Source: Ischnura elegans
Lineage: Eukaryota; Arthropoda; Insecta; Odonata; Coenagrionidae
Length of the DNA: 64,000 bases
Direction: 5' to 3'
NCBI RefSeq assembly: GCF_921293095.1
Contig: NC_060250.1
Span: 112,788,629 to 112,852,628 of the forward strand
Position 1 is the stretch's first letter. Each line of letters begins with the position of its first letter. Position numbers and translations under genes: made by a program. Of this stretch, positions 24,399-52,240 are shown piece by piece. A model generated the notes under the pieces. It made no database searches. It worked only from the letters and a program-made list of their open reading frames with translations, and was not told the DNA's origin.

Positions 24399-24592
24399 AG
24401 CGGATACAGAAAAAACTCAAGGTGGGGGGGGGGGGGCGCAAAATATATCGTACCTTGAGTTAACTTTACTTTTATCGTAGTAAAATATAATCAAGTCAAA
24501 TGCAAAGTTTAAGAGGTTTTTCATTAAAACGATTACGTAAAAAATACAAGACATTGCCACCTTATGATATGAAAAAGTTGCAAAAGGGTGGT
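24399..24592. mobile_element. One-ended hAT-type MITE
   Basis: Starts CAGTAGCGGATACAG, then a poly-G run. It is collinear (inverted) with the complete element 59620-59882, including CTTGAGTT, TTTATCGTAGTAAAA and CTTATGATATGAAAAAGTTGCAA. The far terminus is missing, and the sequence passes directly into the repeat at 24593. Confidence 0.65.
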
Positions 24593-25217
24593 TTCCTATT
24601 ATTTTTTTATTGCCTAAATCGAAAGATTATTACTCCTGGTAAACGAATTTCACACTTTTAGATTTTTAAATGACCATATCTATTTTTTGCAATTAAATGA
24701 AAAGTGAAAATTTTCAAGAGCACGAAAACGCGACGGCTATGTATTAATGCTGGGAAAAGCCCGTGTGACGTCATTCCGGTTCCCGCTGCAGCAAAGTAAG
24801 GTGATCTTGGGGCAAGGATATGTGCGCCGCTGCGATGGCTGCTAGCAGGTAGCGCTTTGCTTATATAAGGATTATTAATAACGAAGGAAATTTTCCGAAC
24901 ATACGCAGTTTCAATAGGTGATTATGAAGAGATGTTTCCCTTGGCTCTGTGCCTCATGCATACATTGGTAATCTCAGACGATGTGAAACTCCTATTTACT
25001 CGTATAGCACCTACGTCCCTGTGAAATCACGTGGAGTGGCATCGCATGGGCGCTAATCTGGCCTTTTCTAATGCGGTTAAAATTGGCCATTGCCATTCGT
25101 CTAAACTGGGATTTCTAAAACCAAATAATGTGTATATTATGAATACACTAATGGTGGGTAACGAATCGCAATCAATCAATCAATGGCTTTCGTTTTCTTT
25201 GATGAAGGAAACTGCCT
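24593..25217. repeat. About 650-bp dispersed repeat, copy 1
   Basis: High similarity over its whole length to 36777-37442 (for example GTGTGACGTCATTC, GCTTATATAAGGATTATTA, GGTGATTATGAAGAGATGTTTCCC). It carries a TGACGTCA palindrome and a TATA-like TTATATAAGG. It has no coding frame I recognise. Confidence 0.8.
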
Positions 25218-26926
25218 GTTCTGCAATGTTTGGCAATACAGGCGGCCCAATAAGGGAGGGGCGCCCCTCATTCAGTATCCGCCACTGGACGCACCGCCAT
25301 CATTCAGTGGACGTGAGCAAAGCAGAAGCCCTCGCCGATGGGCGAGATTCAGAAAACGCAAAATTGGAAAGTTAGGGTGCTTTCTGGCGAATCGATTTGA
25401 TGGCTTCTCCTCCCATTTGAAATAAACGCCTGCAATTTTCCACGATTATAAACTATATTCCCGACCTAGGTCTCGATGTTACTGCATCACCTTCAAGATA
25501 CGAACCAAGGGGGCTGCGTAGAGGAGGCCCCATTTCCATCACACAGATGACTGATTTCTGTTGCGACTCACGTCGCATTTTAATCGGTTTTCAAAAATGT
25601 CCTTGTGTATGGACGTAGTCACAGTGCTATGTTTGGTGCGGCGACCAACTATCTTCTCGTGCCTGCCTCAGAGTATACGATATCCTTTGATTCGAATAAT
25701 GCACTGCTATATACAGGCATTTCTACACATGCATAACTACTTTGAAAACATCGTTGGCATCACAGTAGAAAAGTAAAATGAGACCATAACCTAAAATGAA
25801 AAGCATTAAGTAGGATCGTGTTTTTCGAGTTATTTAAAATGATAACGAATTTTTGAAAAGCTTTATATAGAAAAAAATTCCCTAAAACCTTGACATTTAA
25901 CATAATCAATGAATGGGGGTTTAAAAAAAGCTTAGAAAATTCCTAACATGTCGGTTTAAGCATTAGAAGTTGTGGTGATAGGAAAATTAACCTAATTCAA
26001 ACAGTATGTGCTTCGACCAGACCTTTCCCCTAAAAATTTGAGTTACTATAACGTGAGTTATATTTGTATATAACTGCAGTCATTTACATATAAATGAAAC
26101 CTAAGCTTGATGAAAATATTAAAAACTTTATTTTATGTAAACTTATCGGCTAAAATATATGTTGTATTAACGTTTGACCATGATATCTTTCACCATCAAT
26201 TTACTCAAAATATTTTTCCCATACAACGGTAACACAAGTTCATTAAAAGCTCCCCAGCAAATACGCACCACCCACATTTATTTCTCAATTTCAAATGTTA
26301 TCAACACAAGAATTAAACTTTGAGTAGATATATTATAGTGCTGCGAACAGGCAAGCCATCAAATATTGCGAATAAAAAGACATTATAATGGCTTCAGAGG
26401 ATTCGCGAAATCATGCATGAATCATATATTCTTACTTTAAAGATGAAATTTACAATAGAAACAGGAATTGTCGTTTGAGATAGTTAATTTTTATGCAATT
26501 ACGAACTAACATCCAGTTTAGATTTTTTTTATTGAACCAGCTTTTTCACTTCGTAGAGCCTGTATATGTAGCTATTATTAATAATAGGTAATTGGATGTG
26601 ATCTCTAGGTTATAGCTGGTTAATAGCCTTAAAAATTTAAATAAAATAATTAAATCTGAACCAAAATTATATTTTCTACTACTTCTGACAATTTCAACAC
26701 ATAAACAATGCAAAATTTTAATCACAGCCGTATTCCTCTGATCAGGACAACAATGAATTAGAGCGATGAGCCATAGACACCTATGGTGGCTGTGGATGAG
26801 CTGTGAGGTCTGGACAATCGTTGCCAAGGTAATAATATTGGTAATATTTCATGTTCTTCGGAGCTGAAAAATACGAAGTGTTCTTGAAGTAGAGTTTGTT
26901 AATAGAAGAGTTGATTGCTGAAAAAC
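25218..26926. other. Unassigned, some shared repeat
   Basis: 25500-25600 (GGGGGCTGCGTAGAGGAGGCCCCATTTCC onward to AATCGGTTTTC) is shared with 52900-53000, so it is a dispersed repeat. The remainder is AT-rich without recognised features. Confidence 0.4.
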
Positions 26927-26939
26927 ATGGGAGCTCTGT
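26927..26939 (+). CDS. Possible first coding exon (very short)
   Basis: ATG in a favourable context (AAAACATGG), then GGAGCTCTGT, followed at once by a consensus donor GTAAGT (26940-26945). This gives MGAL plus one base, a phase-1 donor, the same phase as every exon candidate downstream on this strand (28714 to 39367). The split of a start exon after a few codons is common in secreted and membrane proteins. No TATA was recognised upstream. The evidence is a single start-donor pair, so this is tentative. Confidence 0.2.
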
Positions 26940-27939
26940 GTAAGTACCAATTCATTATCTTACATAAATTACGAAAAACTATAACATTAATGCTAACATA
27001 AAATAATACAAATAGGTGAAACATATAGTTAGATGGTCATGCGTTTCTAATGCCCATAGGGTGACTTTTCAATTGCTACTAAAATGTATCTGGTAATAAT
27101 TGGCTGTACAGTAGTTTACCGGGAAAAAGCATTGATTTATTCATAGCATGATACTCCTAGAACAAAAAATTAACTATTAGTAAGGCTCGTCTTGATTTTT
27201 GAGCCAAATTTCGGCCACTTAATGGTGAGACTGCATTCTTAAAATTCGACGAATAATGCGTTTTCTTCTGAAATACAAATATCGATTTCGTAGTAAAAAT
27301 AATTGCAAAAATGCTGTCCTCATACGGAATGATACGATTCTTAAAAAAAACTTTCGGTAAAAACTCATTAAAAAACGAGTTCTACTATCAAAAGTAATTT
27401 ATAAAGGAATAAATTAGATTTGATCGCCAGTTCATTTCTAGGAATGCACCGATTTTCAATTATTTCAAAGTTCTATGGTGCTTTTCCTTATTTTTTTTCA
27501 TTATTCTCAGGAAATACCGCGTAAAATAATATTAATAAATATGGCTTGGAATCAATTCCAATTTGTAATATGTATTCTTTAAGCGGACAGTAAATTTCAA
27601 TGCATTTATATACGCCTAAGTGCATGCAATTTTTTTTCAAACCACATCTGCTCAACCGCACAGTTAGATTTCGGATTTGTGAATTAACTAGTTCACCGCA
27701 CCCCCGTTTTACTACAAAAAGGGTTTCAAATTGAAATAACGAGGTCTTAGTACTGATACACATCACAGCGATGTATGTTCATTGAAATAAATCATGAAAT
27801 TCGGCTGGAAACAGGTGAAAACGCATTCTATCATCAATGCATCCTGCTGATACCAACAAATGTCGTCTTACACGGATAATTACCAGATTTTGAGAGCACT
27901 TGATAACGTTAGCAGCTTACTCTTGATCACTTCTTAATG

Positions 27940-29280
27940 ATTTTCTTCTGTTGCTTCAGAGACTTCATGGATTTCAGCAAAAAAAACTTGCTGGATCAAT
28001 AAACGGATACGACAATAGCTACGACAGAAAATTTGCTTTCCACCGATCCATAGAATGCTTTCCAACCTGCGCTGTCGACGATTTAAGACCGAAAGGGTCT
28101 TAATTTTTAGATGCTGACTTTCTTCACTATCGAAAACACAGATTCAAACAAAACACAGAAAAACCAGTGCGGCCGCCTAGCGTCTAAAATTTTCGTTGCA
28201 CACTTTCAAACGCGTCCAACGATTTTCCTTTGAAATTGGATCATTCCAGCTATTTTCCGCACTGAGGTACGAACGGGGCCCTATCCTTTCCTTGCATCGG
28301 AACCAGCAGCACGATCTGCTGACTACGACGATAGCTGATATTTTCACATTCATTTAACTTAACACTCACGGCAGCATGAGACATATAACCCTTAAAAAAA
28401 TCTTTACATACTTTTTTCATTGGCAGACTTCATCCATTTAACCCCAATTAAGCATCAATCGATGTTTTAATGTTGGCGCCACTATTACTGTTCCTATAAG
28501 AACCGTGAGCGCTCTTTCTTTAAAGATATACTTGCACTGTTTACGCAACTAATTAACTAGAAAATAAACACTATAATACTCATAATTTACCAGGATAACT
28601 ATAATCTGTGGAATTAAAAACACTACTCGCCTATGCAAATTTTGGAAATGATATTTCACCAATATCAAGCAGAACTGAGTTCACGTTATCTTATACTTTC
28701 TTTCTGATTTCAGGCTCTTGTATGCGTAGGCAAAATAGGAAGGAGGAGGAGAACGAAATCGGAGATGAAATCTCCAACTTCGAAGTCACCAAGGTGTCTC
28801 TCATCGATCAGACTTCGGTTACAACACATAAAGGTACGAAGGACTCCAAGTAAATATATTGTACAGCAAGGGCAATATAGTCCACGTCCCACAACGAGTC
28901 AAAATTTTCAATTCGGATTAAAGCTACATTCCCACATGAAGACAATAATTTCCTCATTTCGTCTTTAATGTGTTCATCTTCCCCAATTAAGTGTAAAATA
29001 AAATTCGATTTATTACAAATAAAATACCAAGGCTTCATATTTGAAATCAATTTGGCTTTTTCAAATACTTTTACACTGAATGTAAAAAAATATCGAGGAT
29101 CACAAATTCGATTCGTTTAAGCAACTGGCCTGAAAATGAGCCTCGAAATTATAAAAACCATTTTTTTAATCTAATACTCCTATATGTGAAATTTCATTCA
29201 AAAACTCTTTTCTTGGTAATAAATTGATGATATAATTTGAATACATATTTCGACGGAAACGGTAATTTTTGCGGTTTAGA
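27940..29280 (+). repeat. Exon-cassette segment, unit 1 (exon A, no exon B)
   Basis: Diverged copy of a segment also found at about 29330-30500 and 31230-32720. Shared landmarks: CTTCAG...TTTCAGCAAAA and GGGTCTTAAT (start side), TACCAGG...CACTCGCC, the exon at 28714-28833, then ACAGCAA and CGGATTAAAG (mid), and CGAGGATCACAAATTCG. The part holding the second exon in the other units is missing after about 29270. Confidence 0.65.
28714..28833 (+). CDS. Cassette exon A1, phase 1-1 (unknown protein)
   Basis: 120 bp between a pyrimidine-rich acceptor (TTTCTGATTTCAG) and donor GTACGA, open in phase 1-1. It encodes SCMRRQNRKEEENEIGDE... ending TTHKG, about 40 residues: a Cys and a basic patch, then an acidic hydrophilic stretch. 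Its paralogue A2 (31514-31633) has exactly the same length and phase with about 37% nucleotide divergence by hand count and no indels, unlike the gapped flanks. That argues for coding constraint, past or present. The Cys-plus-basic start could be juxtamembrane, but no transmembrane exon was found. No family recognised. Confidence 0.5.
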
Positions 29281-29329
29281 GAGTAGTTATAAGTTAAAAA
29301 CTTTCTCTGGTTCCATCCTCAATGGTTTT

Positions 29330-30500
29330 GCGCTGCTGTTTCAGAAAGGGTCTAAGATTTTAGCAAAATGACTGATGCGCATTATGAGGCATACCATTAA
29401 CTAGGTAAAAAAATTCACGTTCTGCCGACCTATCGAATACTTCTCAATCTCCGCATCTTTGATTTAGATTGCACGTTTGATTTTGGAGCCGGAGGCTCTT
29501 AATTTATAAAATAAGTTTGTTATGTTCGATAACACAGCACAGGTAAGGCTAGATCATCACAATACATTGCACAGCAACGGCTGCATAGCCCATAATCAAC
29601 AAGTCAAAATGCTAACAATCACCACGGAATAAAATAAGATTCCACAAAAAAGACACCAAGTTGGTTTTTTTTCTATCAGGTGATCATGTTAGCATGTTAC
29701 GTTTTAATTTTAAAAATAAATTCATTAAAATTTTTACGGTATGTAATGAACATGTTAAGGTAACAGACTTGATATCAAATTCTCTTTTGCAAAGGTTCGG
29801 ACAAAAAACAGTAAACTGTTCACGAGGAACACAAATCCGATATATCTATGCGACAAGGTTGAAAATGTGCAGCGCGTAATAAAACAATTTTCTTTTCGAA
29901 TACAACTAAACTAGAAATTACATTCCACAAACATTTTGTGTTTATAATTTGACGACATCGATTCAATTTCTATAAAATTCCAACCTTAGGTGTCAGCAAC
30001 AATGACCAGGAGGAGGATGAAAGTGCATCTACCAATGCATGTGATTCTTTGCTGAATACTCAAGCGACTTCTGAAGATAACGAAGGTAGGAATGAGATCT
30101 TTTCTTCCACAAAACCGGCTGCAGGCATATAGCCTATAAGCTGGAGGGGAAAGTGCAACCCCACCTCTCGAAATTATTGTACACGGAATAATTACCTGCC
30201 ATACATATCCATAGTGGAAAACTAGCTCAGGACTCTCAGGCTTCCTCCTACCTATTAAAGGATTCGGACTGAGATAGTACGAGATGTGTTAAAAATATAA
30301 CGGGCTCTGGGCTTTATAATACAGCCTTATTTATTCATCTACATGTATGCAGTCGCCTTCAAATTAGTCCCTATTAGATATCCATTAGATTACATATTCA
30401 TAACCTCTTTTTCTACGATTTCATCTGCTGTCGATGTTATTGGGTGTCCACATTTTTTGCATTTCTCCAATTTCAACATATTCAAGGTCGTTCAGAAACG
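29330..30500 (+). repeat. Exon-cassette segment, unit 2 (exon B, exon A deleted)
   Basis: Collinear with unit 3. The start-side landmarks (TTTCAGAAAGGGTC, GGAGGCTCTTAAT) run directly at about 29543 into GTAAGGCTAG and GCACAGCAACGGC, which in units 1 and 3 lie just after exon A. Exon A and its upstream intron therefore appear deleted. Exon B (29990-30085) and about 350 bp downstream match unit 3 closely. Confidence 0.65.
29990..30085 (+). CDS. Cassette exon B1, phase 1-1 (unknown protein)
   Basis: 96 bp, acceptor CAACCTTAG, donor GTAGGA. Encodes GVSNNDQEEDESASTNACDS... ending SEDNEG, a very acidic, probably disordered segment. The paralogue B2 (32071-32172) is six bases longer at its 5' end. 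In B1 the ancestral CAG reads CAA, and a new TAG six bases downstream serves instead, so the frame is kept. The shared N-x-EE-D core with A1 and A2 suggests all four exons are one family. Confidence 0.5.
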
Positions 30501-30763
30501 CTTATACCATTCGTAATTTGTTGTTTTGCTAAATGCTGACTCACTTTAGACATTTTCTTACATTTATATCATTTGGTAGACTTTAATTCATGATCATTCT
30601 TTTTTCTCTGAACATCGCTCTAGATATGGTCCATGTAAAACGAAAATCGCCGAGCTGAATAAAACAATTACAACCTTAGCGGCTGCTACGGGAAAAGTAA
30701 AAAAATTAATACAACCGAAATAATTATCATTCTTCCAGGGAATTTTCAATAATACGAGGGTTT

Positions 30764-30845
30764 CCCAGAGTGTATCCACTATATTTTTTTTCGACAAATA
30801 TTTATGGCACATAATGAAAATCACACACATGACAGAATGATGTTA
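30764..30845 (+). repeat. Flanking direct repeat, copy 1
   Basis: CCCAGAGTGTATCCACTATA through CACACATGACAGAATGATGTT. It recurs at 30950-31031 with about 10% differences. The two copies bracket a LINE 3' end. Confidence 0.8.
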
Positions 30846-30949
30846 TTAATCATCATCACTGGTCAACAATCCTAGGATTGGTTTGACGCAGCTCTCCACT
30901 CAGTTCTCCTATCAGCTAATCTTTTCACTCCTACGTATTTCTTCTCTTT
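30846..30949 (-). mobile_element. LINE 3' end (RTE-like family), minus strand
   Basis: ATCATCATCACTGGTCAACAATCC, then CAGCTAATCTTTTCACTCCTACGTATTTCTTC, the inverted 3' end of the LINE family at 6768-7345, about 100 bp long. It separates cassette units 2 and 3. Confidence 0.75.
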
Positions 30950-31031
30950 CCCAGAAAGTATCCACTATATTATTTTTCGAAGTTTATTTATGGCACATAA
31001 TGAAAATTACACACATGACAGAGTGATGTTT
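30950..31031 (+). repeat. Flanking direct repeat, copy 2
   Basis: Second copy of 30764-30845, starting where the LINE fragment ends. Confidence 0.8.
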
Positions 31032-31513
31032 TTACTACACACATTTTTTCACGTAACCTCCGTCCAGTTTTATATCCTTCCTAGAGCGCCTTAAAATAAC
31101 TACCAACGCAAAAATTGAAAATGTTAAAAAAGATTAAATCTCGAGTTAAGATTACCGGGTTATAAGATCATTTAAAAAGTGAAGATTTTACTCACGATCG
31201 CTACTAAATAGAAACATGTCTCTGCTTCCGAAAAGGATAAGCATTATTGTAAAGGGCTCTGTGGACCATTAACAAGTACGAGGTTAAGTTCGAAGAAACA
31301 TTCACGTTACACCGCCCTGTTGAATACTTGTCGAGTTGCGGATTCGACAATATTGATTCCAAAAGAGGCAACCCAAGAAATAAAATTATCTGATGCATTA
31401 CCAGGCTAACCAAAATCTCTGATAATAGAAACACTCGCCCAAAGAGAAAAAAATAATTACTTAGTTTTTATCGGCACCATTTTCGATGTCTTATATTTCA
31501 TATCTAATTTCAG

Positions 31514-31633
31514 ACTGTTGTATAAAAAAGCTGAATAAGGAGGAGGACGCCAATTCCATCGGCGACAGAACGGTGATCTTAGAAGATTCCAAAGTGTTTT
31601 TCCTCGATCAATCTTTGATATTAACATACAAAG
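31514..31633 (+). CDS. Cassette exon A2, phase 1-1 (unknown protein)
   Basis: 120 bp, acceptor TCTAATTTCAG, donor GTACGG. Encodes DCCIKKLNKEEDANSIGDR... ending LTYKG. Against A1 about 14 of 40 residues are identical: the leading Cys, N-x-E-E, the I-G-D core, E, K-V, D-Q and the T/K end. It keeps equal length and phase. The start also aligns with B2 (C-G-V-x-x-x-N-Q-E-E-D-A). The role is unknown; the segment is short, charged and perhaps a linker or cytoplasmic insert. Confidence 0.5.
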
Positions 31634-32070
31634 GTACGGAGAAAACCACGTCAATATTTGCACAGCAAATGTCAGTATTGCCGATGTTCCAGAACGATTA
31701 AATATGCTCACATCGGATTGAAGTTGCATTCTCACATAAAAGCACTAATTTGGACATTCTGTCTGCAATTTGCACATCCTACCCTCTTCATTATTCTTTG
31801 AAATTGCATTTGTTATGCCCTGTGACGATCATGTTACGGTATCAGGCTCGAAATCGAACTGCCTTTTTGGAAAATGTTCACAAGGAACAGAAAACTAATT
31901 CCGACGGACGAATAATTCAATACATTTATGGTACTGGGCTGTAAAATTTTCATCCAATTAAGGAACACTAGTTTATATATATATCTAAAACACCAACATG
32001 AGAAATATATTCCTCAAACCTTTTGTGGAAATAATTTAACGATATCGATTCAATTTCCATATTTTTTCAG

Positions 32071-32172
32071 GCTGTGGTGTCAGCAACAGTAATCAGGAGG
32101 AGGATGCAAGTGTGTCGACGGGCTCGCTTGATTTTTTGATGGAGACGGAAGCGACTTTTGAAGATGACGAAG
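32071..32172 (+). CDS. Cassette exon B2, phase 1-1 (unknown protein)
   Basis: 102 bp, strong acceptor ATATTTTTTCAG, donor GTAGGA. Encodes CGVSNSNQEEDASVSTGS, then DFLMETEATFEDDEG. Compared with B1 over 96 bp I count 23 base differences, affecting 13 of 32 codons at the amino-acid level and only three silently. The flanking downstream intron differs at only about 15 of 200 positions. Confidence 0.5.
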
Positions 32173-33883
32173 GTAGGAATAGGAACTTTTCTTCCACAAA
32201 ACTGGCTTCAGGCATACAGCCATAAAGCTGGAGGGGAATGTGCACCCACCTCTCGAAATTATTGTACACGGAATAACTGCCTGCCATACATATCCATAGC
32301 GGAAAACTAGCTCAGGACTCTCAGACTTCCTCCTACCTATTAAAGGATTCGGACTGAGATAGTACAAGCTGTTTTAAAGACATAACAGATTTTTGGTTAC
32401 ACAATATATATTTTATATTCATCTACATCTTTACAGACACCTTGAAATTAGTCCCTATTAGATATCCATTAGATAAGATATTCATTACTACTTTTTCTGC
32501 GTTTTCATCAGCTGTTGATGTGCTGTTGTTTCCTTTTTTTATTTTCGTTTCTTCATCTTCAACAAATTCACGGTCTACGAAGATACACTTATACCTGTAG
32601 TATTAGTAAACTCTTATACCATTCGTAAATTGTTGTTTCGCTAAATTCTGACTCATTGTGGCCCCTTTCTAACATTTTCACATTTTTTTTTACCTTATTT
32701 GCAGAAAATTCTTTTCTTTGCAGTCCTTCTTTGGTCCATATCATTTAATTAACGTAAATAGCCGAGCTCATAAAAACACGTCTATCTTTAGCGGCTGCCA
32801 CAGACAAAGCAAATAATAAATGCAGCTGAAAAGTTTATCATACTTCCGGGGCATGTCTAACAACGTCATTAAAAATGTTGAAAACTGGATTCTCTTAACC
32901 TGATAATGTATAATATCTTCCAATTACCTGAACACACATCGAATTGTAATTTCTTTACAACTTTTCTCAGCATCAGAAAAAAAAATAATTATGACCGCTG
33001 AAGTTGAAAATTATCATCATTATTGCTCAACAATCCCGTGATTGGTTTGATGCAGCTACCCACTCATTTCTCTCGTCAGCTAATATTTTCAAACATACAT
33101 ATTTCTTCTCTTTCACATCCTGTTTGCACAATTCAATCACACATTTGCCTTTTCCATATATATTGTTCGAGGTCTTCCTTTTCCGTTTTTGCCATCCATT
33201 TGTCCCTCGACGATTGTCTTCATAAGGCCATCTTGTCTCATGTAGCCTAAGGTTGTCCCGTCTTCTTATTGAGGTTTCGTGGGGCTTATCTTCTCTCCTA
33301 CTTTTCTTTTGACTTCCTCATTACAAACTCGGTCGATCCATTTGATCCTCATCATTCTTCTGTAGCACCACATTTAGAAGCCCTCTATCCTTGCTTTCTC
33401 CGCTGCTTTCATTGTCCATGCCTCACTTCCGTATAGGGGCATACTCCAAATGTAGGCTCTTTTATATTGTTTCCTTTCGTCCATATTTAAGTTTCCCGCT
33501 GTAAGCAGGTCTCTCTTTTGATGGAATGCTCTCTCCGCTTGGGCGATTCTGCTGATAATTTCTTTCTTGCTTTCCCCGTCGTAAGTGATCCTGCTTCCCA
33601 AGTAACAGAATTCATCCACCTCCACCAGCGATTACTTCTCCATTTTAATGTTCGTCTTGACTTCTCTTCTGCTACATACTAATATCTTCGTTTTCATTGT
33701 GTTTATCTTCAGTTTACATTTACCCATTACCCTACCTATGTTAACCATAATCTTTTTCAAATCCTCCTCTGTTTCTGCTATGTCGGCTATGTCATTGGCA
33801 AATGTTAGCATGCTAATTTCTCCCCATGAATATTCACTCCCGAAGTCTTTTCTTTGATTTCATTAATTAGTTTCTCGGCGATT

Positions 33884-34290
33884 GTTTTTCGGGTTAATTC
33901 CGCGTCGTCTCATGTTTGGCGGACGACAGTTTCGGACGCGTTCCAGCTCTCGTCTTCGGATCCAAAAGTCTTCGTGTCCAATCTATCGCCTCCCTTATCA
34001 GCCGAGGGAAATATTTATTCTCTCTGGCGATGATTTTTGATTCTTGAAATAGAGTGACGTGCCCATGTTCCGACCATGCGTGCTCCGCAACCGCAGAAAG
34101 GCGAAACATTTTTCTTTTCGGTAGCCTTGCGATGTTCATCTATTCTTCACTTGAGGGATCTGGATTATTGCCCGATGTATCATTGACCACAGGAACACAT
34201 TACTTCATACACTCCCTTATATATATCAGGTGGGTCACGATCTATTCCACTCCGGAGGAAGTCAGAGGTCTTCTTTAAGCTTTTGCAAAT
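33884..34290 (-). mobile_element. Penelope-like element fragment (GIY-YIG end)
   Basis: The open frame 33894-34139 on the minus strand reads LSAVAEHAWSEHGHVT, then ARENKYFPRLIREAIDW, characteristic of the C-terminal GIY-YIG endonuclease region of Penelope-like elements (AVAEH, then I-REAIE). Downstream is a 3' segment (GGTGGGTCACGATC, GGAAGTCAGAGGTCTTC) that recurs at 34586-34680 and inverted at 34940-35035. It is inserted in the LINE RT. A degenerate hammerhead-like core lies at 33930-33959. Confidence 0.7.
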
Positions 34291-34297
34291 AAAATTT

Positions 34298-34728
34298 GCT
34301 ATATAAAATCATCAGTGAAAGGTAATCGGCAAGTGAGATACCTAAGGACTTCGAGAGGAACATTATAATCCCGATTCCTAATAGGAAAAGAGCGGAGAAC
34401 TACGAAGATTTTAGGAACTGACTACACATACGTCGAAAATACTGACAAGGATCATCTATAGAAGAATAGAACCAAGAGCCGAAGGCTAAATGGGTGAGGA
34501 CCAATGTGGATTCAGAAAAAACAGAGGCACAATGGAAGCATTATTGGCGCTTATGTTACTCATAGAGAAGTGAATGGAAAATATATACTTCATACACTCC
34601 TTTAAATATATCAGGTGGGTCACGATCTTTTCCACTCCGGAGGAAGTCAGAGGTCTTCTTTAAGCATTTGCAACTCGTCAAAACGTCGTGTTTGGCGAGA
34701 ACTCGAGCTCAGCAGATCATTTGGATCC
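34298..34728. repeat. Large inverted repeat, left arm
   Basis: LINE RT sequence (34298-34585) joined to a Penelope-like terminus (34586-34728). The whole is mirrored at 34895-35323 with few differences. The arms are about 430 bp around a spacer of about 166 bp. Confidence 0.85.
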
Positions 34729-34894
34729 TTTGGACCATTGGTTCATTTAAAATTTTCAACGTTAACGTCGGGAAAGCAATTGATACGGAGGCTTCCGCGG
34801 TGATTAAATTGGTGATTGTTTCTTGGGTTAATTCCGCGTCGACTCACTTTTGGCGGACGACAGTTTCGGGAGCGTCCCAGCTCCCATCCTCGGG
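34729..34894. other. Spacer of the inverted repeat
   Basis: Contains GGTTAATTCCGCGTCGACTC, then GGCGGACGACAGTTTCGGG, a close relative of 33890-33940 in the Penelope-like fragment, and a degenerate hammerhead-like core on the minus strand (GAAA at 34864-34867, CCGAGGA at 34887-34893). Confidence 0.6.
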
Positions 34895-35323
34895 TCCAAA
34901 TAATCTGCAGAGCTGGAGTTCTCGCTAAACGCGACGTTTTGACGAGATTCAAATGCTTAAAGAAGACCTCTGACCTCCTCCGGAGTGAAAAAGATCGTGA
35001 CCCACCTGATATATTTAAAGGAGTGTATGAAGTATACATTTTCCATTCACTTCTCTATGAGTAACATAAGCGCCAATAATGCTTCCATTGTGCCTCTGTT
35101 TTTTTCTGAATCCACATTGGTCCTCACCCATTTAGTCTTCGGCTCTTGGTTCTATTCTTCTATAGATGATCCTTGTCAGTATTTTCGACGTATGTGTAGT
35201 CAGTTCCTAAAATCTTCGTAGTTCTCCGCTCTTTTCCTATTAGGAATCGGGATTATAATGTTCCTCTCGAAGTCCTTTGGTATCTCACCTGCCGATTACC
35301 TTTCACTGATGATTTTATACAGC
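34895..35323. repeat. Large inverted repeat, right arm
   Basis: Reverse complement of 34298-34728. The right arm is continuous with LINE sequence on its outer side (to 35597), so this arm is the resident copy and the left arm the inverted duplicate. Confidence 0.85.
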
Positions 35324-35597
35324 TGGTTCAACGCCTTTTCTCCTCCATTTTTAATTAGCTCTGGGGGAATTACAGAGGTTTTAATTATCCGATGGTCTCT
35401 TACAGCCGCATCAAATTCTGATCATAAAATTGGAACTCCCATGTCATCTTCATCCACTTCCCTAACGTTTTCAATAGCATTCGTTCATAGGCTGCTTCCT
35501 TTGTTCAAATCTTCCAGATATTATTTCCATCTCTTCCCTATGTCTTCGCTTTCAATCATTAGTTCTCCGTTTTTGTCCCTAAGGGTATTACATCTTA

Positions 35598-35852
35598 AAG
35601 GGGCGCAGCTAGGAATTAAGGCTAGTGGAGGGTTTCAGGCGCAAAACACTGGGGTGCCTGAAGGTGTAGAATACCGCCAGGGTAAGCGGGAGGTGCGGGG
35701 GCACTCCTTTTAAAAAATTTCAGATAAATGGTTCAAAATGGTGAGTTTTACGGTCTTCTGAGGGATATTTTATTCATATTTACACTATTCTATAAGCAAT
35801 ATTAATCCAATTAAGTGAAATAGATCCCAAACCCCCCCTCGCAGCGCCTCTG
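35598..35852 (-). mobile_element. hAT-type MITE nested in the LINE
   Basis: Ends AAGGGGCGCAGCTAGG and GCAGCGCCTCTG. The flanks are ACATCTTA (35590-35597) and ACATCTTT (35853-35860), an 8-bp duplication with one mismatch. The body (CCGCCAGGGTAAGCGGGAGGTGC, AAAATGGTGAGTTTTACGG) matches 48671-48969, 50591-50901 and 59235-59570, which lie in the opposite orientation. Confidence 0.85.
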
Positions 35853-36776
35853 ACATCTTTCCTCAAAGAGTTTCTTCATTATCCTATAGGTGGTCTCTAC
35901 TTTTCCATGCACAATATTGTTTTGTATGTCTGCACAAATATTTTTCATCAACGCTTCTCTTACCTTCCTCGCTTTACGACGTATCTTGTTCCTTATTTTC
36001 TTTTCTGCCCTTCCTCTGTTTTCGCAACCTTGTAATTTCTTCTCCCTTCAATGAGATTAAATACTTCCTTCGTGATCCATGGTTTTTTCATAATGACTTT
36101 TCTTTTACGAAGAACTTCCTCAGTTGCTGCCTGCAGACCACTTCTTATGGTTTTCCAACTCTCTTCCACTGATTTATTGATCGTATCCGGGCCTATTCTC
36201 TCTTTTACAGCTTCTTTAAAAGTCAGTTAATGCTGAACCTCCTTCAATTTTTCAACCTGTCATATGTTTTTCACGGCTTTCTTTAATTTGTTTAATATTA
36301 GGTGGCATTTTATCATAACTAAATTATGGTCACTGTCGATATCTGCCCCTGAGTAGCTTGTCATTCACCTGGTTACTGAATCTTTGTTTCACAAGAATGT
36401 GGTCGATTTGGGATCTTCTAAGGTCTCCAGGCATCTTCCACGTGTATCTTCTTCGCAGGGGATTTTTTAATAGAGTGCTGGTTTTATTTCCGCACTTTTA
36501 TGTCGACCCATAAACGTACATGATTCTAGGATGACAGCCCACATATACATTTCAGTGGGTAAATGGCGGGGGTAGAGTTTCGGGAAAGGGGGATATGTAA
36601 CATGAGGAAGGGATCGGAAAATAAAAAGGTGGGAGACCGGGAGGGTATTTGCTAATGAGGGTTACCGTAGTTATAACGGGAATAAGAAGTGATTCATGAA
36701 GAACTGGCGGTGGGTGGGAGATAGAAAAAAAATGGGCTCGAAGGAAGAAAGGAATGGGAACATATTATCGCTATAC

Positions 36777-37442
36777 AATAGGGCGGTTTCCTTTTATTTT
36801 TTATTGCTTTAATTGAAAGATTATTACTCATGGAGTACGAATTTCACACTTTTAGATTTTTAAATGACGATATCTATTTTTCGCGATTAAATGAAAAGAG
36901 AAAAATTTCAAGCGCGCGGATACGCGACGGTTAAGTATGAATGCTGGGTAAACCCCGTGTGACGTCATTCTGGTTCCCGTTGCCGCGAGTGATGTGACCT
37001 TTGGGCGAGGATGTGTGCGCTGCTGCGATGCAGGCAGCTAGTAGGTAGCAGAGTACCCTGCTAGCAGGTAACGATTGGCTTAAATAAGGATTATTAAAAC
37101 CTTATTAAACGAAGGAAAGTTTCCAACTATAGGCAGTTTTAATAGGTGATTATTAAGAGATGTTTCCCTGAGCTCTGTGCCTCACGCATGCATTGGTAAT
37201 CTCAAGCGATGTAAAACTCCTATCTCCTTGTATAGAAACTAGGTCTCTGTGACGTCACGTTGAGTGGCATCGCATGGGCGCCAATCTGGCCTTTTTCAAT
37301 TGCGGTTAAAATTGACCATTGTCATTCGTCTAAACTGGGACTTCTAAAACCAAATAATTTTTGTATTATGAATACACTAACTGTGGGAAACGAATCGCAA
37401 TCAATGCCTTTCGTTTTTTTTAATGAAGGAAACTACCCTATT
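36777..37442. repeat. About 650-bp dispersed repeat, copy 2, with short TIRs
   Basis: Collinear with 24593-25217. The termini are AATAGGGCGGTTTCCTT and AAGGAAACTACCCTATT, inverted with two mismatches, suggesting a non-autonomous DNA element. It retains GTGTGACGTCATTC. The TATA-like block of copy 1 is TTAAATAAGG here. Confidence 0.75.
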
Positions 37443-37723
37443 TAAAATCAGCCGGGTAATTTACAATTTCGACCACTTTTTAGAAATCATGTTTCCTACC
37501 CTTGATAAGTACACTATACGTGTACACATACATACGTTGAAAATGGCATTATGTGCTGAAACTTAGTTCAGTCGAAATAAAAGAGAGTGGAAATAAGAGT
37601 ATGCGCTTTCATTATGTTAAATAATACCAATTCTCACAGAATTAGGCCGGAAAGTGTATCTTTTGCATCATAAAGTTATTTCTACGTCTCGGATTTTATT
37701 TTTTTCAATTTTTATAGTTTCAG

Positions 37724-37912
37724 ATTCAACCGTGACAAAGCCCACTATAGATTTGACTTCTGTGCGCCCTGGCACTATAATAGTGACACGCCTGCAACCT
37801 GACAAAAAGTCACACCATGGATCCCCATACTCAAAGGTTACAACAACCCTTTATGACCTTGGCCCGGGAAAAATTTTCAAATTTTGGATCCATATTGACA
37901 AATTTTAGTAAG
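37724..37912 (+). CDS. Fibronectin-III-like exon, phase 1-1, with late stop
   Basis: Acceptor TTTATAGTTTCAG, donor GTAAGT after TAAG. It is open for 61 codons from DSTVTKPTIDLTS, then PGTIIVTRLQPD, then YSKVTTTLYDLGPGKIFKFWIHI. The L-x-DL-x-PG-x-x-F-x-F pattern is the E-F strand signature of fibronectin type III. The usual core Trp appears replaced (VTRL). FN3 exons are typically phase 1, as here. An in-frame TAG (37906-37908) lies just before the donor, so the copy is a pseudo-exon, ends the protein here, or the domain call is wrong. At about 60 residues it is shorter than a full FN3 domain (about 90). Confidence 0.4.
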
Positions 37913-39366
37913 GTAAGTTTTCGTTCCCATCCCTTCACCTACAATGTTGTATCGGTGGAAAGCCTGCCGCCTTGTACTATTACCGCTAAAGCAGCTATTA
38001 AAACCTATCAATCCCGTAGATCAGGTCATCCGTGGTTCAAATTCATTTCGTATCATACTTGAATGAGCAGTATCAGGATTTTTAAAGATAGCTAGAATTT
38101 TCCGCGGATTCGGCGAACTTTGAAATCCTTTCCTTAGACTAACAACGTTGTTCTGTGCAAGATGAAAGTGGTGGGCTAGAAATAAAAATCTAAAAGCTCG
38201 GGTATATATCTCAAGCCCACAACTTCCATCTATCACCATATAAACAAATTCGACGTAGTTATCACGAAAGTGTCTTGATGACATAATATATTTCAAATTT
38301 ACGATAATTTCAGGCATGTCTTAGTCACAAACATCTACCTGTGGATTAACTCTGAAGAAGCTACGATTTTTTAGACTTGCGATCGTACAAATAAACCGAA
38401 ATTACGAACGAAATTTTTAAATTAAAACATTTAAATACTCATATCTGCCTTTTCTCGGGTTTTCCTCCGCGGAAGTTTCCTAGGGGACAAGAATTTTGTT
38501 TGCTATCCTGCTAACCTCTTGAAGTCGATGGCATGTGGTCCACCTTAACTGTTTGTAACTGTATTTGGACAATGGTTCCGGTGAACTACATACCATATCT
38601 CCGGTGGTTTTTCCGGAGAGCGATTCAGAGATTAAACTATTACCAAGAAAACTTTTGTTCTAAAATTTGATTACTGTATTTAAAGCAGGTAGGATAGTTT
38701 CGACACGAATATTGCCTTTATTTTTTGTATTATAGGGGGGGGGGTCTCCAATCATCCACCAAATAGTTACGCCACTAACTCCGGGTTAGGGATAGGAGAG
38801 GGGGGTCGAAAAATTCAAGAATGCGTCCGTCATTAAGTAGCCACAAGAATAATATTTTCATGAGGCAGTTTCTCAAGATGGAACGCTATCGAAAAAATAA
38901 TTAAAGAAGACTAAATAAAGAATCAAAGATAAAAATAACGCCATTTTAACTTCGATCCGGGAAAGAAATATCCTCATTTTAGAAGGTAGGGAAGTAAAGC
39001 TAAGTAAGTCAGTAATATTAGTAAGTAATAAGCTTAACAGCCCGCCAAAAATCAATTAAAATCTATGAAATCATGACCTTATTGTTAGATATAATTGAGT
39101 TTTTTAATTGGCATCACAACTTTCAAATAACTTTATGATTGTTTTCATATACCACTGTTTTTCTCTTAGTTTTAACGTTATGCTAGGATTAAAGTATCGC
39201 TCCTAGCCGGTACTGAGTTATTTACAAGATTTTGGATAGTAAATAATTATTTCCATACATAATAGGTACTACGAAAGTAACTTCCATAGCTCATGGCCGT
39301 AATACTTGTTACGAAAGGTACATATTTTATGTAGAAATAATTATCTAATATGTTTTCTCTTTTCAG
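37913..39366. other. Unassigned; MITE-end remnant near 38735-38776
   Basis: No exon with paired sites found. GGGGGGGG followed by AATAGTTACGCCACT near 38740-38776 is the right end of a CAGTGGCG-type MITE whose left end I cannot place. Confidence 0.35.
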
Positions 39367-50909: not shown

Positions 50910-51343
50910 TACCATTAACCGCAGTATAAATTGGTTTTTCCCGGGGACCATGATCAATGTAAGCTTCGGTTATCTCATTTACAAGAAGGGCATTCCTTGA
51001 TATTTAAAATTTGAATGCACCAACAACGAAATGACAGCGCCGAGGGCGGGTATGTTATAGCTGAACCTGTCAGTCAAAACTCACCCCAACCAGCCAGTTA
51101 ACATAATGAATTTTAACAATGGCGCATGTGTACCGTTGGCTGTGTTATGTACTGCTTGTGTGAAAAAGGAAGCTTAAAACTAATGATTTAGAATATTTCA
51201 ACTTGCGGTATGTCAATTATATCAATTAATTTTGTCATGCGTTTTCATTTATCTTTTGGTCATTTTTTCTTTTTTATTCACAATAGAAATCGATACTACG
51301 AGGCTTGCTTTTTCATCTACGCGAGTGTTAATATACATGACGG
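50910..51343. other. Unassigned
   Basis: AT-rich. No feature recognised before the LINE that begins near 51344. Confidence 0.4.
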
Positions 51344-52240
51344 ATTATGACTGTATACCGCGGCCATATCGCCGCTGCTTTTTAACGTACATATACGCTG
51401 AGGAGATGTTAAGAGAAGCGTGGGACGAGTTGGAAGCTGGAGTGAAAGTGGGAGGAATGATGTTTAAATCGGTAAGGTTCGCGGATGATCAGGCGCTGAT
51501 TAGCCAGTCAGCGAGGGGACTGCAGGCTCTAGTGGATGCGTTAGACGAGCGGTGCGAGGAGTATGGGATGAGGATTAATCACAAGAAGACTAAGGTAATG
51601 CGATTTCGTAAAGCATCGCGAGCGAGGAATGTGAGACTCAAGATAAAAGTAGGTGGGGAAAAACTTGAGCAGGTTGAGAAGTTCAACTATTTGGGCAGCA
51701 CATTAGAGGAAAACGGACACAGTAGCAAGGGCATCAGGAAGCGAATTGCACTAGCAAAGGAACAGGATTCATGAACAGGAAGGAGCGTGAAAGAGTGAAG
51801 AATTTGATCTGGAGTGTAGCTCTCTACGGTGCGGAAACGTGGACACTGAGGAAAGAAGATGAGAGAAAATTGGAGGCATTCGAGATGTGGGTACGGAGAA
51901 GAATGGAGAAGGTGAAATGGGCGGAAAGGAAAAGGAACGACGAAGTGCTCGATATGGTTGGCGAGGAAAGGCAGCTTTTAGATGAGATATGGAGGAGACA
52001 GACGGTATGGATGGGAGGAGTACTTAGCGGGGAGGGGATGTTGAAAATGGTGTTAGAGGGTAGAACGTTAGGGAAACGAGGGAAGGGAAGGAAAAGAATA
52101 TGATTTTTAGATAGATTGAAAGCGGGTAGGCCTCACAGTGAACTGAAGAAGGCAGTGCTGGAAGGAAAGTGAGGCTCCTAAATCACTTCTTTAGTATTCC
52201 ATGGAAACCTACCTTAATCGGTACAATACTATAATAACCG
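51344..52240 (+). pseudogene. LINE RT and C-terminus, frameshifted
   Basis: ISPLLFNV (about 51368, a different frame), then YAEEMLREAWDELEAGVKVGG, VRFADDQALISQ with an intact F-A-D-D catalytic box, GMRINHKKTKVMRF, FNYLGSTLEENG, then after a frameshift near 51771 KNLIWSVALYGAETWTLRK, EAFEMWVRRRMEKVKW and DEIWRRQTVWMG. The order is RT palm, thumb and the conserved LINE C-terminal domain. At least two frameshifts and a 5' truncation make it inactive. It is the youngest-looking RT in the window because long stretches remain open. Confidence 0.85.

What the first reader, a model, noticed from the sequence alone, without database searches (positions are those of the whole stretch)
27940..32720. Array of four paralogous phase 1-1 exons in three diverged segment copies
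Seen: exons at 28714-28833, 29990-30085, 31514-31633 and 32071-32172 each have a CAG/TAG acceptor, a GTA(C/G)G donor and an open frame of phase 1-1. Three start with an (x)C motif and all share an N-x-E-E-[DE] core, so A and B types look like one family. A1 and A2 keep identical length with about 37% divergence, while flanking introns carry indels. Inference: a gene that grows by duplicating symmetric exon cassettes, perhaps with alternative or mutually exclusive splicing. I do not recognise the protein family.
Basis: partly seen in the sequence, partly recalled or inferred. Interest (0 to 1): 0.75.

Follow-up and report, generated by a model that had tools for sequence, protein, structure and literature searches.

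The report
Damselfly gene built from repeated exons
The four look-alike exons are real and belong to one uncharacterised damselfly gene, whose middle part grew by copying and partly losing a two-exon cassette; the gene family it belongs to was found only in this species in the protein collection searched.

Summary
The window is Ischnura elegans chromosome 5. All four reported exons exist with intact phase 1-1 frames. Joined with a 13-nt first coding exon (26927-26939) and a last exon (37718-37908) they translate letter for letter to NCBI LOC124159420, 213 aa, 'uncharacterized'. So that model splices all four into one protein; mutually exclusive splicing is neither supported nor excluded.

The array is three A-B units with losses: unit 1 lost B (relics of it remain on chr9 and chr2), unit 2 lost A (donor stump at 29543), unit 3 kept both. 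The start of A1 and the end of the last exon match a dispersed, partly tandem family (23 further loci at E<=0.01); in six of the nine loci fetched both ends lie in one open exon. Protein searches returned only two members, both I. elegans.

Divergent family members show purifying selection; the cassettes show none measurable. Three other copies of this gene are broken. The MGALCSC/MGLLWSC starts suggest an acylated membrane anchor (motif recalled, untested). Most likely a fast-evolving lipid-anchored acidic protein lengthened by exon duplication: a known mode, in an undescribed family.

The parts
26927..26939 (+). Exon 1, coding part: ATG GGA GCT CTG T / gtaagt (MGAL + first base of Cys5)
   Evidence: Joined CDS equals P0001 letter for letter
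28714..28833 (+). Exon A1, 120 nt, phase 1-1; supplies SCMRR after MGALC
29243..29250 (+). Junction where unit 1 runs straight into unit 2; about 480 nt holding exon B0 is present here in the chr9 relic and missing from the window
   Evidence: chr9 matches to 28983-29250 and 29243-29908 lie 480 nt apart; B profile hits chr9 (E=2.5e-11) and chr2 (E=4.9e-8) there
29525..29641 (+). Stump of the lost A exon of unit 2: about the last 18-20 nt, donor cag/gtaagg at 29543, and its intron; same truncation in the chr9 relic
   Evidence: A profile positions 144-260, E=1.3e-4; chr9 positions 144-266, E=1.5e-10
29990..30085 (+). Exon B1, 96 nt, phase 1-1; uses the inner TAG acceptor (outer CAG is CAA)
30140..30289 (+). 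Intronic block after B1, 140/148 identical to its copy after B2 while surrounding intron is about 73%; no RNA structure signal; core occurs only at its two window copies genome-wide
31514..31633 (+). Exon A2, 120 nt, phase 1-1
   Evidence: counterpart on chr1 open with a 3-nt deletion
32071..32172 (+). Exon B2, 102 nt, phase 1-1; uses the outer CAG acceptor
32227..32374 (+). Second copy of the intronic block
37718..37908 (+). Exon 6 with stop TAG; ends in the family motif TTLYDLGPGKIFKFWIHIDKF
   Evidence: family matches

Best explanation
LOC124159420 is a real, fast-evolving protein-coding gene of six coding exons that joins all four exons in one message. It is an enlarged member of an orphan I. 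elegans family: a tiny first exon gives MGxLx, the next exon starts (S/G/A)C plus basic residues plus an acidic stretch, and the protein ends in LYDLGxxxIFxFWI. In this member the start of that exon was duplicated (A and B, then A-B units), each copy ending at a donor in phase 1, and only the last exon keeps the C-terminal motif. Because every cassette is phase 1-1, gain or loss of a cassette never broke the frame; unit 1 later lost B, unit 2 lost A, and B1 and B2 kept different ones of two acceptors 6 nt apart. Likely work of the protein: the MGALCSC start is myristoylated and palmitoylated, holds the protein to a membrane, and the cassettes form a longer acidic disordered spacer between that anchor and the C-terminal motif, which would bind a partner. 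Shown: gene model, exon homologies, losses, family, selection on the divergent family members. Inferred: order of duplications, lipidation, spacer and partner binding.
For: Exact match of the joined exons to NCBI protein P0001. Unit structure and losses by profile search and by chr9, chr2, chr1 copies. Family: LOC124174150 (P0002) shares the MGxLxSC start and the C-terminus; 23 further loci at E<=0.01; six of six loci with the exon start carry a phase-1 CAG acceptor just before (S/G/A)C and an open frame to LYDLG. L044 against L045: dN 0.356, dS 1.396, 79.3 amino-acid changes where 95.3 are expected without constraint, 0 of 2000 simulations as few; 11 of 15 family pairs have p<0.05, pairs not independent. 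Exon 6 against family: 0 of 5000 shuffles in 3 of 3 tests; A1 against L045 p=0.005, A2 against L043 p=0.0008. Protein pI 4.5.
Against: No sign of amino-acid constraint in the cassettes or in the last exon: A1-A2 32.2 changes against 31.8 expected, B1-B2 16.0 against 16.2, exon 6 against chr1 16 against 15.3; only A2 against chr1 is low, 12.2 against 15.8, p=0.04. Exons diverge as much as or more than their introns. L044 against A1 is not significant (p=0.12), B exons match no family start tested (p 0.53-0.96), and the four close or noisy family pairs (p 0.08-0.27) show no constraint. The NCBI model may be predicted without transcripts. No relic of the C-terminal motif was seen in the introns after A1-B2, so the truncation step is not documented. 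Lipidation rests on a recalled motif.
Confidence: 0.75

Rival explanations
1. A decaying copy: the locus is a pseudogene or a transcript without protein function, still open by chance and picked up by the gene predictor. The chr1, chr2 and chr9 copies show where it is heading.
For: Near-neutral change in all three window comparisons (A1-A2, B1-B2, exon 6 against chr1); exon divergence not below intron divergence; the three other copies are broken: chr1 A donor GT to AT and a 2-nt insertion in B, chr9 44-nt deletion in A, chr2 rearranged fragments.
Against: Five coding exons beyond exon 1 all open, in matching phases, with intact splice sites and a start and stop, while three relatives broke; no indel in A1-A2 or B1-B2 exons while flanks have many; the wider family is constrained.
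Confidence: 0.25
2. The four exons are alternatives: skipping or mutually exclusive choice makes isoforms.
For: All 16 subsets remain in frame; exons are homologous and similar in length; a 150-bp intronic block is unusually conserved beside B1 and B2.
Against: The one annotated protein includes all four. The block shows no RNA structure beyond shuffles (z -0.28 to 0.35). My test for complementary pairing within the gene timed out without output, so it is undecided.
Confidence: 0.12
3. The array is a piece of a transposable element.
For: Dispersed similar copies on four chromosomes at roughly 75-88% identity; transposon sequence sits in intron 5 and in the chr9 neighbourhood.
Against: Only 2-3 places per exon or intron query (lower bounds); copies end at different points; no Pfam or Rfam match; exon-intron gene anatomy.
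Confidence: 0.04

Closest known systems
LOC124174150 [Ischnura elegans], 118 aa (P0002) and its unannotated relatives on chr1, 2, 3, 6, 9
   Same: MG-x-L-x-S-C start, basic residues then acidic stretch, C-terminal T-x-LYDLG-xx-IF-x-x-WI-x-I; phase-1 start of the second exon
   Different: Its body is one uninterrupted exon; LOC124159420 has five coding exons after the first and four cassettes
Bicycle genes of aphids (PMC9168663, passages seen)
   Same: Uncharacterised fast-evolving insect family; small internal exons nearly all in one phase; internal exons that start at codon position 2
   Different: Bicycle genes average about 17 exons (passage); no sequence relation tested or seen; here no signal peptide-like start but MGALCSC
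Tandem exon arrays such as insect Dscam1 or nAChR alpha6 (titles and abstract starts only)
   Same: Homologous exons of matching phase in a row
   Different: There one exon of a set is chosen; here the annotated protein contains all
Schistosome micro-exon genes (recalled; only paper titles listed)
   Same: Orphan proteins made of small symmetric exons
   Different: Much smaller exons as I recall; no relation tested

Membership tests
LOC124174150-type family (defined here) | C-terminal LYDLGxxxIFxFWI motif at the protein end | tested here: met
   tblastn E 1e-4 to 4e-9 within 144 kb; 0 of 5000 shuffles in 3 of 3 comparisons
LOC124174150-type family (defined here) | MGxLxSC start with an exon boundary in phase 1 before (S/G/A)C | tested here: met
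   P0001 MGALCSC, P0002 MGLLWSC; CAG/GC TCT TGT in A1, equivalent acceptor in 6 of 6 loci L043-L048. Exon 1 of the other loci not located
LOC124174150-type family (defined here) | Body in one exon from (S/G/A)C to the C-terminal motif | tested here: not met
   Interrupted by introns between A1 and exon 6. A derived trait of this member, by my reading
Mutually exclusive exon array | One exon of the set per transcript | tested here: not met
   Only annotated product has all four; isoforms not testable without RNA
Aphid bicycle genes | Many small internal exons starting at codon position 2 | tested here: inconclusive
   Four internal exons, all start at codon position 2; bicycle minimum is 5 exons, mean about 17 (passage)
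Aphid bicycle genes | Sequence or fold relation to bicycle proteins | not tested
N-myristoylated and palmitoylated proteins | Gly2 and small residue at 6, cysteines next to it, and actual acylation | not testable with these tools
   Residues present in P0001 and P0002; motif rule recalled, no predictor or assay run
Transposable element | Many copies with common ends | tested here: not met
   2-3 places per query (lower bounds), different end points

The most novel reading that the evidence does not exclude
The cassettes are exchangeable membrane anchors. Each begins where exon 1 (MGAL + T) can join it in frame, so whichever cassette follows exon 1 sets the acylation site: A1 gives MGALCSC, A2 MGALYCC, B2 MGALCCG, B1 MGALCVS, and skipping all gives MGALFSD with no cysteine. 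Exon skipping would then tune where and how tightly an otherwise identical protein sits on membranes, and duplication of the anchor-bearing exon start would be the way this gene gained that choice.
Probability: 0.08. Interest if true: 0.6.

Novelty: new member of a known kind. Interest (0 to 1): 0.4.

Why it matters
It is a well-preserved record of how a gene grows: relatives with the body in one exon, a member with duplicated phase-matched cassettes, matching exon losses in neighbouring units, and two duplicates that kept different acceptors. It also names an undescribed, fast-evolving family with tandem clusters, of which the protein collection held only two annotated proteins, both from I. 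elegans, and gives its two recognisable ends for searches in other Odonata.

Tried and rejected
Rejected: high-copy transposon (low counts, differing ends); mutually exclusive splicing as the default (all four exons in the annotated protein); Rfam RNA (0 matches at gathering score); structured RNA in the conserved intronic block.

Led nowhere: Pfam on the peptides and on 7 of 7 family sequences (0 families); NCBIfam gave one match, glycogen debranching enzyme, E=0.12, 9.5 bits against a cut-off of 1399.55, dismissed; PDB sequences 0 matches; papers naming LOC124159420 or LOC124174150: 0 and 0. The exon-1 region (26640-26960) matched only itself and an 85-base stretch on chr6 at 78%, not followed. 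My exon-1 pattern was mistyped by two bases, so its zero means nothing. The pairing test timed out with no output and was not repeated.
Full report
WHAT IT IS. The window lies at 112,788,629-112,852,628 of contig C5, 137,531,555 bases, in an assembly of 1,722,721,009 bases in 110 contigs. The published I. elegans assembly has 1,723 Mb in 110 scaffolds, chromosome 5 of 137.53 Mb and chromosome 9 of 115.52 Mb (PMC9975421; abstract and the section Genome sequence report read). A protein search with the four exon peptides joined to the last exon returned one protein, 'uncharacterized protein LOC124159420 [Ischnura elegans]', 213 aa, on a contig of 137,531,555 bases. Joining 26927-26939, 28714-28833, 29990-30085, 31514-31633, 32071-32172 and 37718-37908 gives that protein letter for letter plus a stop. 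I found the last exon from its similarity to a chr1 copy before the protein search; the first exon came from the protein.

The annotated protein uses all four in order. Whether NCBI's model rests on transcripts is unknown to me.

ANATOMY. Profiles of exons A and B with flanks, each built from two window copies and one chr1 copy, were run over 144 kb around the window, 90 kb of chr1 and 70 kb of chr9, and 9 kb of chr2. Unit 1 has A1; its B is missing where 29250 meets 29243, but chr9 keeps about 480 extra bases there with a B exon (E=2.5e-11) that ends in a stop codon, and chr2 keeps a B piece (E=4.9e-8). Unit 2 has B1; of its A only the last 18-20 nt and the donor remain, cut at the same place in the window (E=1.3e-4) and chr9 (E=1.5e-10), so that loss predates the two copies. 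Unit 3 has A2 and B2. At the start of B the chr1 copy reads CAGGCTTAGG, with two acceptors 6 nt apart; B1 reads CAACCTTAGG and B2 CAGGCTGTGG, so each kept a different one. That explains the 96 against 102 nt and the missing (x)C in B1.

OTHER COPIES OF THIS GENE. Genome searches by DNA gave: A1, itself and chr9; A2, itself and chr1; exon 6, itself, chr1 and chr2; B2, itself, B1 and chr1; 27940-28700, itself and chr9 in two pieces. The tool says that such counts are lower bounds. chr1 matches intron 1 from 26945, A2, B2, 36334-37934, but the A donor is AT instead of GT and B carries a 2-nt insertion. chr9 matches 26282-29908 in pieces, 31211-31334 and 35274-36519, with 44 nt missing from A. chr2 has inverted and shortened pieces of the A intron, B0 and exon 6, then 38230-38891. 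No match to exon 1 was found in the stretches fetched; for chr2 these were 9 kb only.

THE WIDER FAMILY. tblastn of P0001 in its own genome gave, beyond these, weak hits that all cover the end of the protein. Of nine loci then fetched (L040-L048), six (L043-L048) hold an open frame from (S/G/A)C plus basic and acidic residues to a C-terminal T-x-L-(Y/F)-x-LG-xxx-(IVL)F-x-(x)-(W/C)I; L040, L041 and L042 show only the C-terminal end in the stretch fetched. In these six the exon begins after CAG in phase 1, as A1 does. Adding the rows at E<=0.01 gives 23 further loci: chr2 1, chr6 5, chr3 7, chr9 8, chr1 2, with clusters at chr6 93.36-93.40 Mb, chr3 115.3-115.6 Mb and chr9 77.38-77.67 Mb; several rows carry stops. 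A profile search of 5.8 billion proteins returned two proteins among 1,379 candidates at E<=10: LOC124174150 (118 aa, chr2) and LOC124159420, both I. elegans; single searches returned only the latter. This search needs shared five-residue words, and few annotated damselflies may be in it, so absence elsewhere is weak evidence.

SELECTION. Simulated neutral change with the same numbers of transitions and transversions: A1-A2 32.2 amino-acid changes observed, 31.8 expected; B1-B2 16.0 and 16.2; exon 6 against chr1 16 and 15.3; A2 against chr1 12.2 and 15.8 (p=0.04). Chance of no stop in these four comparisons was 0.29, 0.57, 0.51 and 0.56. So the cassettes show no measurable constraint. In the family L044 against L045 shows it clearly (dN 0.356, dS 1.396; 0 of 2000); 11 of 15 pairs have p<0.05, the exceptions being the three close pairs L045-L046, L045-L048, L046-L048 and L046-L047. 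The pairs share sequences, and distant pairs were aligned by protein, which favours low counts.

HOW IT LIKELY WORKS. Phase-1 boundaries make cassette gain and loss harmless to the frame, so length could drift. I infer a lipid-held acidic protein: MGALCSC in P0001 and MGLLWSC in P0002 fit the myristoylation and palmitoylation pattern as I recall it; the pI is 4.5. The C-terminal motif is the best-kept part across the family and is my candidate for partner binding. None of this was tested.

UNEXPLAINED. The intronic block 30140-30289 agrees with 32227-32374 at 140/148 while the intron around is near 73% and the exon itself 73/96. Its 29-base core occurs twice in the genome with up to 3 mismatches, both here. 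No RNA structure signal. Gene conversion and constraint both fit.

VERDICT. A confirmed observation, largely right reading, in a gene already annotated but not described in the papers searched by locus name. Interest is moderate: the mode is known, the family and the clear record are not.

Noticed in passing
30140-30289 and 32227-32374: Intronic block after B1 and B2, 140/148 identical against about 73% around it, found nowhere else in the genome by its 29-base core.
   Followed up: partly
34298-34728 and 34892-35323: Inverted repeat of about 430 bases at 96% identity inside intron 5 of the gene, a fold-back element lying in transposon-like sequence 33010-36519 that also occurs in the chr9 stretch.
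   Followed up: no
24581-25216 and 36777-37442: A repeat of about 660 bases at 81% identity, with many further copies in the chr1, chr2 and chr9 stretches.
   Followed up: no
51187-51774: Reverse transcriptase fragment (Pfam RVT_1, E=3.3e-10).
   Followed up: partly
G000 C9:77380913-77415312: Four nearly identical tandem copies (97-100% in protein) of another family member, open over 147 aa.
   Followed up: partly
L019 and L032 (chr1 and chr2 copies), beside exon 6: The copies of exon 6 on chr1 and chr2 carry about 80 more bases upstream than the window, apparently a lost part of the exon.
   Followed up: partly
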